From a virus, in IMG/VR virus record IMGVR_UViG_3300047319_001872, positions 62,001 through 126,000 of that record: a DNA stretch of 64,000 nucleotides; one strand, given 5' to 3'. A program made the translations under genes and the position numbers. This document shows positions 7,529 to 58,068 of the stretch, one piece after another (positions within the stretch are counted from its first letter, which is position 1; each line of letters begins with the position of its first letter). The notes beneath the pieces are model-generated. The model ran no database searches. It was not told the origin of the DNA and saw only the letters and a list, made by a program, of their open reading frames with translations.

Positions 7529-8038
7529 ATGACGATGCAATCTTCTGGCGCGATCAGTATCGGGCAGGCGATGGCAGAGTGTGGGATTGGCCAGCAGCAG
7601 TACGACGCTGCTGGCGTACCGATCTCGATGCTGGCAGGGGTGGGCTCAGGTTCCCAGTACGCCTGGTCGTATTGGTACGGAAAGTCGAATCTGACCACCT
7701 ACAACAATGCGCTCTTCGCCCAGTATGCGATGTATATTGACCGCAACGGTTATCTGTCGCTTAACTTCCGTACTGGGGCCTATAACGGGTATGGCTTTAA
7801 CGGGGATCACGGTCCACACCTGTCCTTCTGTAATTTGCAGATGGCCCCGATCGATAAGATCGCGCAGTACCGCACGGTGTCCTGTACACCGCAAAAGTAC
7901 GCCGGTCGTTCGAACGTGTCGTTGCAACAAGCACCCAACGCAGGCAACGACTGGACGGCGATCTTCTACAACGATGATAACCCGTGGGGCGGGGCGTCAG
8001 ATGTCGGGGTGAATGTGCTGATCACCGCGATTCCTTAA
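7529..8038 (+). CDS. Putative tail-tip/fibre-associated structural protein
   Basis: 169 residues directly after the chaperone-bearing fibre. The N-terminus SSGAISIGQAMAECGIG followed by VPISMLAGVG and a YWYGKSN stretch resembles the short N-terminal module found in many phage tail-tip and hinge proteins. The remainder is rich in Gly, Tyr, Asn and aromatic residues, as in receptor-contacting tips. It has no membrane segment. The 3-base gap to the upstream stop indicates translational coupling. Function as an additional tail adhesin or tip cap is inferred from position and composition. Confidence 0.65.
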   Translation: MTMQSSGAISIGQAMAECGIGQQQYDAAGVPISMLAGVGSGSQYAWSYWYGKSNLTTYNNALFAQYAMYIDRNGYLSLNFRTGAYNGYGFNGDHGPHLSFCNLQMAPIDKIAQYRTVSCTPQKYAGRSNVSLQQAPNAGNDWTAIFYNDDNPWGGASDVGVNVLITAIP

Positions 8039-56625: not shown

Positions 56626-56776
56626 TTCAGTTCCTTGTAACAATTGTAGAGTAACGACCAATGCGGGGCTTTGCACCCTCTCATGCGCGGGTAGTAGCTT
56701 ACCCATACGAAGTGCCCAGTGCGTAAAAATCACATTCCTTCGAAACAACGACATTTTCTCGCCGTGCTCGACACAA
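56626..56776 (-). promoter_or_regulatory. Leader/promoter region of the HTH gene
   Basis: About 150 bases without a gene. The minus strand reads CTCTACAATTGTTACAAGGAAC just before the start. Related strings occur before other minus-strand genes, for example TTACAATCGTTACAATTG before the AAA+ gene and AACTCGTTACAAGG before the gene starting at 46210. It may be a promoter element or a conserved leader. Confidence 0.4.
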
Positions 56777-56811
56777 CGGCATAAGAGGAGAGCTGAAGCT
56801 CTCCTCCCATA
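56777..56811 (-). terminator. Terminator at the end of the RNA locus
   Basis: GAGGAGAGC at 56785-56793 pairs with GCTCTCCTC at 56798-56806, with CGGCATAA on the left and CATAC on the right. It is the first terminator downstream of the tRNA-like genes, so the RNA transcript may run to here. Confidence 0.82.
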
Positions 56812-56883
56812 CCTGAAGCGTCGATTGCAAAGTCCTGTGGACAGGGATAAGCAAAAGCTTTGACTCTATGCGACTCGAATGCA

Positions 56884-57291
56884 CTTCCGACTATACTTAC
56901 CAGACAAGGTGGCCATCCCGACAAGTAAGCATACCCGGCTGCGCATTCCCAATCCGACGTAGACGCAGCGGCCGCGGTGAAAACCGCAGGCGCCACTAGG
57001 CGAACAAGTCTCGACGCGGGCCAGATGGCGCGCTACGACTCCGCGTCGGCACATCGGGTTACCCCGGTTACCAACGATTCGCGAAGAAGTGAGACTAGAC
57101 GCAGTATCGGTACTGGAAACAAACAACTTACTGGCGTTTGCGTCGCCAGTCGTACGATTCGTGGCACCCATCGCGCGCAAACGCGATTTCGACCACACGT
57201 AGGTACCTCCGCTAATCGTGAGTCACGGAGTCACAGGCGAAACTCGCCTGAATCTTGCTACTACAAATCGATTCACTCTAAATACGTGATG
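56884..57291 (-). ncRNA. Gene-free structured region downstream of the tRNA-like genes
   Basis: No protein gene on either strand. Inverted repeats are dense: CCGACG at 56954-56959 with CGTCGG at 57044-57049 closing a roughly 96-base domain; inside it GCGGT-GAAA-ACCGC and CGCC-ACTA-GGCG; then CTGGCG-TTTGCGT-CGCCAG at 57131-57149; CGCG-CAAA-CGCG near 57173; and AGGCGA-AAC-TCGCCT near 57234. On the minus strand part of the first domain (TTCGCCTAGTGGC) recalls a tRNA D-arm. The strand is uncertain; minus is inferred from the neighbouring RNA genes. It may be further tRNA-like RNA or degenerate remains. Confidence 0.4.
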
Positions 57292-57362
57292 TAGTCGGAC
57301 AGGTGTCGAACCTGTGTCTCCGGTGGTTTAGACCGACGTCAGTCCCGGCTGACCCCCGACTA
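57292..57362 (-). tRNA. tRNA or tRNA-like RNA with non-standard anticodon loop
   Basis: A complete cloverleaf: acceptor TAGTCGG/CCGACTA, D-arm GTCA/TGAC, anticodon stem TCGGT/ACCGG, T-arm ACAGG-TTCGACA-CCTGT. The anticodon loop is CTAAACC, formally anticodon AAA with C at position 37. AAA is rarely used and position 37 is normally a purine. No CCA is encoded. It may be a working Phe-type tRNA or an altered one like its neighbours. Confidence 0.6.
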
Positions 57363-57377
57363 CAGTACAACAAAACT

Positions 57378-57459
57378 TGGGTCCCGTGAGGGATTCGAAC
57401 CCCCGTTGTTCTCTTCACTCATCGTGAAGATAGGTCCTAGGCCACTAGACGAACAGGAC
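57378..57459 (-). tRNA. tRNA-like RNA with extended anticodon hairpin, no standard anticodon
   Basis: Acceptor GTCCTGT/ACGGGAC, Glu-like D-arm (TCGTCTAGTGGCCTAGGAC) and T-arm GGGGG-TTCGAAT-CCCTC are intact. Between them the anticodon arm is 6 bases longer than normal and folds as TCTTCAC-GATGA-GTGAAGA, a perfect 7-bp stem with a 5-base loop. No U33-anticodon arrangement can be drawn. It may be an inactive tRNA or a mimic. Confidence 0.6.
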
Positions 57460-57476
57460 ACGGTTACTACTAAAAT

Positions 57477-57602
57477 TGGTTCCGTCAGGTTGGTATCGAA
57501 CCAACGACCTCCGTCTGGTTGGTGAGTGGGAGAGTCCACCCTACCTGGCCGGTAGGTGGGCCCACTCGGGTGACGGCGCTCTACCAACTGAGCTACTGCG
57601 GA
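57477..57602 (-). tRNA. tRNA-like RNA with a roughly 57-base rod in place of the anticodon loop
   Basis: The 5' part reads TCCGCAG-TA-GCTC-AGTTGGTA-GAGC-G-CCGTC; the 3' part reads GACGG-AGGTC, then T-arm GTTGG-TTCGATA-CCAAC, CTGACGGA and ACCA (CCA encoded). The acceptor pairs as TCCG-CAG with CTG-A-CGGA, one bulged A. The anticodon stem CCGTC/GACGG is perfect, but 57 bases separate its halves where 7 are expected. These fold as a rod: GAGTGGG/CCCACTC, then CCACC-TACC with GGTA-G-GGTGG. No anticodon can be assigned. A splicing intron of a known type is not recognised. Confidence 0.65.
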
Positions 57603-57627
57603 CACTGAAGTACAACGGTAAAAAGGA

Positions 57628-57760
57628 TGGTTCCAAGCGACACGAATCGAACGTGTGACCTCCCGTCTGTGTATACCAACTCCACCACTTCCCCTAACGG
57701 GGAAGCCCGGATTCGAACCGGGGGAACTACGGGCACTCTTCCAAACTGAGCTACGCTGGA
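57628..57760 (-). tRNA. Double-headed tRNA-like RNA: two tRNA bodies sharing one anticodon helix
   Basis: Read on the minus strand in order: acceptor-A 5' TCCAGCG; D-arm A (GCTC-AGTTTGGAA-GAGT); CCCGT; variable loop and T-arm B (CCCGG-TTCGAAT-CCGGG); acceptor-B 3' CTTCCCC; loop GTTA; acceptor-B 5' GGGGAAG; Leu-like D-arm B (GTGGAGTTGGTATACAC); ACGGG; AGGTC and T-arm A (ACACG-TTCGATT-CGTGT); acceptor-A 3' CGCTTGGA and ACCA. CCCGT and ACGGG pair perfectly, so both bodies meet in a single 5-bp helix with no anticodon loop. Acceptor A has a bulged base like the neighbouring tRNA-like RNA. Each half alone would have mismatched acceptor ends. Confidence 0.7.
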
Positions 57761-57785
57761 CACTGATACAGCTACTACGAATTCT

Positions 57786-57861
57786 TGGCTCCCCAGGCTG
57801 GACTTGAACCAGCGACCAACGGATTAACAGTCCGCTACTCTACCAACTGAGCTACTAGGGA
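57786..57861 (-). tRNA. tRNA-Asn (anticodon GTT)
   Basis: Normal cloverleaf: acceptor TCCCTAG/CTGGGGA, D-arm GCTCAGTTGGTAGAGT, anticodon stem GCGGA/TCCGT with loop CTGTTAA, T-arm GCTGG-TTCAAGT-CCAGC, discriminator G and encoded CCA. Confidence 0.93.
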
Positions 57862-57881
57862 ATTGATGCGCATGCGAATGG

Positions 57882-57963
57882 TGGAGAAGGATGGATTCGA
57901 GCCATCGTAGGCAAAGCCAACAGATTTACAGTCTGCCCCCTTTAGCCGCTCGGGCACCTCTCC
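57882..57963 (-). tRNA. tRNA-Tyr (anticodon GTA)
   Basis: Class II tRNA with long variable arm: acceptor GGAGAGG/CTTCTCC, anticodon loop CTGTAAA, T-arm GATGG-CTCGAAT-CCATC. CCA is not encoded. All elements are standard. Confidence 0.93.
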
Positions 57964-57992
57964 GTCATGATGCATATACATACGGGTGAATC

Positions 57993-58068
57993 AGAGAGGG
58001 CGTTGAGGACACGCACGACGTTCACACAGGCTTCTGGTTAGGAAGCCTGCGCAAGCATCACCCTCTCT
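57993..58068 (-). ncRNA. Possible armless tRNA-like RNA at the head of the cluster
   Basis: 76 bases closed by AGAGAGGG/CCCTCTCT. On the minus strand it contains a mini D-like hairpin TGC-TTGC-GCA, a 7-bp/7-base anticodon-like arm AGGCTTC-CTAACCA-GAAGCCT and a weak T-like arm GCGT-GTCCTCA-ACGC lacking the TTC consensus. Length and order suit a degenerate tRNA. It could also be a leader hairpin or processing element. Confidence 0.45.

What the first reader, a model, noticed from the sequence alone, without database searches (positions are those of the whole stretch)
57292..58068. Cluster dominated by anticodon-altered tRNA mimics: candidate defence against anticodon nucleases
Of seven tRNA-sized units, only Tyr(GTA) and Asn(GTT) are standard. 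Many bacterial anti-phage systems (PrrC, RloC, some retron and PARIS effectors, VapC-type toxins) cut tRNAs in the anticodon loop, and phages respond with resistant tRNAs. RNAs that present acceptor, D and T arms but no anticodon loop could occupy such nucleases or their sensors, or instead occupy host tRNA-processing or charging enzymes. That function is inference; the structural oddity is directly visible.
Basis: inference. Interest (0 to 1): 0.8.

Follow-up and report, generated by a model that had tools for sequence, protein, structure and literature searches.

The report
Twin tRNAs fused at anticodon stems
A giant bacterial virus encodes, among ordinary tRNA genes, RNAs in which two tRNA bodies are joined end to end where the anticodon should be; related viruses keep this shape while changing the sequence, so it is a real new kind of tRNA mimic, probably bait for host enzymes that handle or cut tRNAs.

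Summary
The cluster is real: Tyr(GUA) and Asn(GUU) are ordinary and the other units are not. But two of the "seven units" are one 133-nt RNA (57628-57760, minus strand). The 5' unit's acceptor pairs with the next unit's 3' acceptor, and an inner, circularly permuted tRNA sits where the anticodon loop should be: two tRNA elbows share one anticodon stem, with no anticodon. I call it a twin tRNA.

I found 14 twins in 8 phiKZ-like jumbo phage records, including Burkholderia phage FLC9, where none is annotated. Paired changes support all three helices that join the halves. A second RNA (57477-57602) has a structured insert replacing its anticodon loop and recurs in 9 records. Both types share a 1-3-nt bulge in the outer acceptor. 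No Rfam family reached threshold; a twin-specific pattern found nothing in 84,980 prokaryote genomes; no paper found describes it.

The inner body has the topology of the tRNA-mimic module of bacterial Y RNAs (YrlA), but these phages lack Ro60. Most likely these are non-decoding decoys or competitive inhibitors of host tRNA-binding enzymes. Anticodon nucleases are plausible targets, supported by a published suggestion for YrlA and RNA-repair ligases in four lineages, but untested. Architecture: strong. Function: inference.

The parts
57628..57760 (-). Twin tRNA: one 133-nt RNA made of an outer tRNA body A, interrupted at its anticodon by a circularly permuted inner tRNA body B
   Evidence: Covariation over 12 homologues; curated pairing table of 14 homologues; covariance-model hit 157 bits
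57754..57760 (-). Twin: 5' strand of the outer acceptor stem (UCCAGCG)
   Evidence: Pairs with 57632-57639; all 7 pairs change on both sides somewhere in A7 (helix 1)
57735..57751 (-). Twin: D arm of body A (GG kept in loop)
57729..57733 (-). Twin: shared anticodon stem, 5' strand (CCCGU); no anticodon loop follows
   Evidence: Pairs with 57662-57666; 4 of 5 pairs change on both sides (helix 3)
57706..57722 (-). Twin: T arm of body B (loop UUCGAAU)
57688..57705 (-). Twin: acceptor of body B, closed as a hairpin CUUCCCC-GUUA-GGGGAAG
   Evidence: 6 of 7 pairs change on both sides (helix 5); closing loops in relatives: UUCG, GUAU, GUCU, or CCA plus spacer
57669..57685 (-). Twin: D arm of body B, tRNA-Leu-like
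57662..57666 (-). Twin: shared anticodon stem, 3' strand (ACGGG)
57640..57656 (-). Twin: T arm of body A
57628..57639 (-). Twin: 3' strand of the outer acceptor with 1-nt bulge (CGC-U-UGGA) and 3' ACCA
   Evidence: Bulge of 1-3 nt in 14 of 14 twins
57477..57602 (-). Unit 3: insert tRNA-like RNA with normal D and T arms, 5-bp anticodon stem CCGUC/GACGG, bulged acceptor (UCCG CAG / CUG-A-CGGA) and 3' ACCA
   Evidence: Homologues in 9 records with different but complementary acceptor and anticodon stems
57516..57570 (-). Unit 3: most of the insert in place of the anticodon loop, with helix GAGUGGG/CCCACUC followed by ACCAACCA
   Evidence: A helix followed by CCA-like letters recurs in 5 of 6 distinct lineages
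57380..57459 (-). Unit 2: tRNA-Glu-like RNA whose anticodon arm is replaced by hairpin UCUUCAC-GAUGA-GUGAAGA
   Evidence: Fold; anticodon arm unaligned in Rfam tRNA; the counterpart at L010:7352-7435 also has a non-standard arm
57290..57363 (-). Unit 1: tRNA-like RNA with 9-bp acceptor and loop CUAAACC (formal anticodon AAA); among the loci compared only in the window and L007
57786..57861 (-). Ordinary tRNA-Asn(GUU)
57879..57963 (-). Ordinary tRNA-Tyr(GUA)

Best explanation
Shown by comparison: 57628-57760 encodes a single 'twin tRNA'. Outer body A has an acceptor (with a conserved bulge) and a 3' ACCA. Instead of an anticodon loop it continues through a shared anticodon stem into a second, circularly permuted tRNA body B, whose acceptor is closed by a short loop. 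Both bodies keep the elbow signature (GG in the D loop of B in all 14 copies and of A in 12; UUCRANU-type T loops in nearly all). Unit 3 is a cousin, with a different structured domain in the anticodon loop and the same bulged acceptor. Neither can decode. Inferred: they are transcribed and processed with the flanking tRNAs and act as non-decoding tRNA decoys or competitive inhibitors. They bind host enzymes that recognise the tRNA elbow and acceptor, offer no anticodon loop to cut or read, and are kept out of translation by the acceptor bulge. The likeliest beneficiaries are the phage's own tRNAs during attack by a tRNA-targeting defence. Origin (inferred): the junction of a tandem pair of tRNA-B genes ended up inside the anticodon region of tRNA A.
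For: Architecture: 14 twins in 8 phage records. In the hand-made pairing table 13 of 14 have every pair in both parts of the outer acceptor (the exception lacks one), and 14 of 14 have 5/5 in the shared anticodon stem and a complete inner acceptor, while self-pairing of each half is 2/7 in the window. On the model-fitted alignment of 12, 26 of 36 pairs show two-sided changes; covariation score 0.664 against 0.170 in shuffles and at most 0.132 when partners are slid. For L007 the twin fold is the minimum-energy fold. The FLC9 and G026 copies, which did not seed the model, were found by it. GG is kept in the D loop of B even where its D stem is lost. Origin: closing loops in L010, FLC9 and L027 still read as CCA plus spacer. 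Function: body B has YrlA topology (Rfam alignment); YrlA's tRNA-like domain was not cut and was proposed as a competitive nuclease inhibitor (PMC7790460). RNA ligases occur in FLC9, G016, G026 and G037; RtcB is in 3 of the 7 records with twin or unit 3 among the 24 searched, and in 0 of the other 17.
Against: No expression, binding or phenotype data. No RtcB or RNA_ligase-family gene was found in G000, G001 or G002. The window RNA alone does not fold more stably than shuffles. The covariation alignment was fitted to the model, which favours it. The bulge, the recurring helix plus ACCA in unit 3 and the outer CCA end could serve a specific partner rather than a generic decoy. The RtcB association is small (35/2024, about 0.017 by hand) and the records are not independent.
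Confidence: 0.45

Rival explanations
1. Y-RNA-like scaffold: body B works as in YrlA, as a docking module for an effector such as an exonuclease or RNA-modifying protein, and body A (instead of the Ro60-binding stem) is the handle that recruits tRNA-like clients or a phage protein.
For: Same permuted order as YrlA: T arm, closed acceptor hairpin, D arm, held by one stem. A related phage (G011) has an array of YrlA-like RNAs with permuted tRNA modules next to a TROVE/Ro60 gene. tRNA and Y RNA superpose with circular permutation (PMC11472068).
Against: No TROVE gene in any twin-bearing record tested. The twins lack a Y RNA stem, and no YrlA match reached the Rfam cut-off.
Confidence: 0.2
2. Amino-acid carriers outside the ribosome: body A is charged at its CCA end and donates an amino acid to a non-ribosomal reaction.
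For: 3' ACCA in 11 of 14 twins and 8 of 9 unit-3 copies; D and T arms intact.
Against: The acceptor carries a bulge in every copy; three twins end in AACA; acceptor sequences differ widely between lineages, so no shared synthetase identity is visible.
Confidence: 0.1
3. Inhibitors or customers of host tRNA maturation or charging (RNase P, CCA enzyme, modification enzymes, synthetases), throttling host tRNA production during infection rather than countering a defence.
For: They keep exactly the parts those enzymes read (elbow, T arm, acceptor, CCA) and lie between real tRNAs.
Against: The phage uses the same enzymes for its own Tyr and Asn tRNAs; no direct evidence.
Confidence: 0.15
4. Decaying tRNA genes: the cluster is a graveyard of broken tRNAs made by recombination.
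For: Clusters vary between close relatives, and units 1 and 2 are confined to a few of them.
Against: Compensatory changes in all three helices that bridge the two halves; the same architecture in several lineages, with up to four copies in one genome.
Confidence: 0.05

Closest known systems
YrlA, bacterial Y RNA (Rfam RF02553)
   Same: Circularly permuted tRNA mimic: T arm, closed acceptor hairpin, D arm, held by a stem in the place of the anticodon stem.
   Different: Below the family cut-off; no Y RNA stem and no Ro60 in these phages; the stem leads into a second complete tRNA body with a CCA end.
Permuted tRNA genes of algae and archaea
   Same: 3' half encoded before 5' half.
   Different: Those are processed into decoding tRNAs (own knowledge); here no anticodon exists at the junction and the permuted tRNA sits inside another tRNA.
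Phage tRNAs with altered anticodon loops predicted to resist anticodon nucleases (PMC10264068)
   Same: Phage tRNA clusters; suggested answer to tRNA-cutting defences.
   Different: Those still decode; the twins and unit 3 have no usable anticodon.
tmRNA and viral tRNA-like structures
   Same: tRNA-shaped domain without an anticodon.
   Different: No message-like region, and no match above threshold (permuted tmRNA 13.5 bits against 47).

Membership tests
tRNA (Rfam RF00005) | Cloverleaf scoring at or above the gathering score over the twin | tested here: not met
   No hit over 57628-57760; only Asn, Tyr and, marginally, unit 2
tRNA (Rfam RF00005) | 7-nt anticodon loop with a readable anticodon | tested here: not met
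   CCCGU is followed directly by the variable region of body B
YrlA / bacterial Y RNA | Permuted order T arm, closed acceptor hairpin, D arm, closed by a stem | tested here: met
   Body B in all 14 twins, though the D stem of B is reduced or lost in some
YrlA / bacterial Y RNA | Covariance-model score at or above 69 bits | tested here: not met
   0 of 25 records over the cut-off
YrlA / bacterial Y RNA | Partner Ro60/TROVE protein in the genome | tested here: not met
   None in G000 or the other twin-bearing records searched; only in G011, which has no twin
YrlA / bacterial Y RNA | Ro60-binding stem | tested here: inconclusive
   Replaced by body A in the twins; binding itself not testable here
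tmRNA | Match to a tmRNA model or tag-peptide call | tested here: not met
   ARAGORN calls no tmRNA; permuted tmRNA 13.5 bits, cut-off 47
Anticodon-nuclease decoy | Binds or inhibits a tRNA-cutting enzyme and is itself uncut | not testable with these tools
   Needs biochemistry

The most novel reading that the evidence does not exclude
A previously undescribed class of non-coding RNA: two tRNA folds fused through one anticodon stem, the inner one circularly permuted, used by phiKZ-like jumbo phages as two-headed tRNA decoys against tRNA-targeting immunity.
Probability: 0.35. Interest if true: 0.92.

Novelty: new variant of a known kind. Interest (0 to 1): 0.8.

Why it matters
tRNA mimicry by a two-bodied RNA was not found described in the papers searched. 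It gives a compact, testable object for an open question: why large phages carry tRNA clusters, including members that cannot translate. If the RNAs shield phage tRNAs from defence nucleases or block tRNA enzymes, they are RNA-based counter-defences. Standard tRNA finders and Rfam miss or mislabel them, so similar RNAs may be hidden in other phage tRNA clusters.

Tried and rejected
Two separate degenerate tRNAs for 57628-57760: rejected, since each half pairs with the other and not with itself. Spliced or split tRNA: no anticodon at the junction in the window copy. tmRNA. Ro60 partner in the window's phage: none. Known Rfam family: none at threshold. Folding energy as evidence: not significant. 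The YrlA-like matches in the window (20.7 and 21.8 bits) span the T arm of one unit and the D arm of the next, so I treat them as cross-unit artefacts. Plasmid BLAST with the twin and named-phage BLAST with the odd core of the cluster: no match; the G026 cluster in named phages: no match. SCTP-2, phage contigs L028/L030 and BcepSauron: ordinary tRNAs only. T4 Rnl1-type ligase: nothing rang anywhere, uninformative. A type-2 twin pattern in viral contigs gave only L027. Pfam and PHROGs on ten neighbouring proteins: mostly unknown, no tRNA-related function.

Full report
What is there. The interval lies in G000, a virus record of 313,315 bases. Its major capsid protein is 88% identical to that of Burkholderia phage FLC9 and about 30% identical to PhiPA3, so it is a jumbo phage related to phiKZ-like phages. 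The minus strand carries ordinary tRNA-Tyr and tRNA-Asn followed by odd units. Rfam at gathering score sees only Tyr and Asn in the whole window.

The main finding. The two tRNA-sized pieces between 57628 and 57760 are one RNA. Read 5' to 3': outer acceptor 5' strand UCCAGCG; D arm; CCCGU; T arm of a second tRNA; its acceptor closed as CUUCCCC-GUUA-GGGGAAG; a tRNA-Leu-like D arm; ACGGG, which pairs with CCCGU; variable loop AGGUC; T arm of the first tRNA; outer acceptor 3' strand CGC-U-UGGA with a one-base bulge; ACCA. So an outer tRNA is interrupted at its anticodon by a circularly permuted inner tRNA, and the two share one anticodon stem. No anticodon loop exists.

Evidence that the architecture is real. 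Neighbouring relatives L007, L008, L009 and L010 were found through the adjacent gene, FLC9 by DNA similarity, L027 by a DNA pattern and G026 through capsid relatives. A covariance model seeded with four sequences found copies in eight records: one each in G000, G001, G002, G003 and G004, two in FLC9, three in G016 (L027), four in G026 (L112). With model R2 all 14 twins score 73-148 bits, unit-3 copies about 62-73, ordinary tRNAs at most about 60. On the 12-member alignment 97.6% of pair cells are standard pairs, 26 of 36 pairs change on both sides, and none of 500 shuffles matched any measure. That alignment is fitted to the model; the hand-made table of 14 copies gives the same answer from the sequences. 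For L007 the predicted minimum-energy structure is exactly the twin. Energy alone is not evidence: z = -0.71 for the window copy. In G026 some copies keep longer junctions between the A and B anticodon regions, which look like less compact forms.

Shared details. Every twin and every unit-3 RNA has a 1-3-nt bulge in the 3' strand of the outer acceptor. D-loop GG is kept in body B of all 14 twins, even where the D stem of B is reduced, and in body A of 12. The loop closing body B is a tetraloop in several copies (UUCG in FLC9) but CCA plus spacer in others (CCAUCGUUGUAUU, CCAUCAAU, GCCAUCUA), as expected if B came from the junction of two tandem tRNA genes (inference).

Unit 3 (57477-57602) has normal D and T arms, a 5-bp anticodon stem and a structured insert of about 56 nt. 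Homologues occur in the same eight records and in G037. In five of six distinct lineages the insert ends in a helix followed by ACCA or CCACCA, as if it carried a small acceptor mimic. Unit 2 and unit 1 are narrower: unit 2 has a counterpart with a different odd arm in L010, unit 1 only in L007, and decay cannot be excluded for them.

Distribution. No match to a twin-specific pattern in 84,980 prokaryote genomes, none in plasmids, and no named phage except FLC9, where the record has no tRNA or RNA annotation at these places. Many capsid relatives lack twins; several are incomplete records, so absence there is weak.

How it most likely works. Without an anticodon these RNAs cannot decode. What selection has kept is the elbow, the T arms, the outer acceptor and a CCA end, with a bulge that ordinary tRNAs lack. 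That is what a ligand of tRNA-binding enzymes needs, minus the part that anticodon nucleases cut. I therefore favour a decoy or competitive inhibitor (about 0.45). The closest precedent is YrlA, whose permuted tRNA module superposes on tRNA (PMC11472068), escapes the RecA-dependent nuclease and was proposed as its competitive inhibitor (PMC7790460). RtcB is found in FLC9, G026 and G037 and an RNA_ligase-family protein in G016 and FLC9; such phages may face tRNA damage, but the window's phage showed neither. Anticodon nuclease as the target stays unproven; enzymes that read elbow and acceptor are equally possible.

Relation to Y RNAs. I tested for Ro60. It is absent from the twin-bearing records searched and present in only one relative, G011, which has no twin. 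In G011 the TROVE gene lies within an array of RNAs with permuted tRNA modules, the best matching YrlA at E = 4.3e-10. So the same phage family holds two solutions built on a permuted tRNA module: Y RNA with Ro60, and twin tRNA without it. The twin works like a tRNA mimic of that kind but is not a member of the Y RNA family by the features tested.

Novelty. Searches of open-access papers found nothing describing fused or two-bodied tRNAs in phages; subscription papers and preprints were not searchable. I rate it a new variant of a known kind (tRNA-mimic RNAs), close to a new class in architecture.

Noticed in passing
L113 (G011:C1:126000-132500), minus strand: Array of RNA units starting with AAUGC and closed by outer stems (for example AUAAAUC/GAUUUAU), several with permuted tRNA modules, flanking a 566-aa open frame with a TROVE/Ro60 match (7.6e-7): looks like a phage-encoded Ro60 with many Y-RNA-like RNAs.
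   Followed up: partly
window 56760-57290, minus strand: About 500 bases between the cluster and the next minus-strand gene with no convincing gene; 89-95% identical in L007-L009, with parts conserved in L010 and FLC9 (69-77%) and no Rfam match: possible large structured RNA.
   Followed up: partly
window 57964-58068, minus strand: Hairpin RNA just upstream of tRNA-Tyr (GAGAGGGUG ... CGCCCUCUC with inner GGCUUCC/GAAGCC); also in L009, with similar sequence in L010 and FLC9, and replaced by an open frame in L007 and L008.
   Followed up: partly
L010 (about 7730-7800 onward) and L004 (about 9230 onward): Serine-type tRNA-like units with an insert of about 80-110 nt at the anticodon containing GACUGGACUUUAGGA; a similar sequence lies downstream of the cluster in L008 and L009.
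   Followed up: no
L009:7521-7603; L010:7922-7999; L009:7622-7699: Further odd units: a tRNA-like RNA with a long hairpin for an anticodon arm, and tRNAs for which ARAGORN reports a four-base anticodon (cgaa) with mismatches in the middle of the acceptor.
   Followed up: no
spacers in window 57360-57880 and in L004, L010, L027: Spacers between units share a UUUnGUAGUA-like motif, perhaps a processing signal of the tRNA operon.
   Followed up: no
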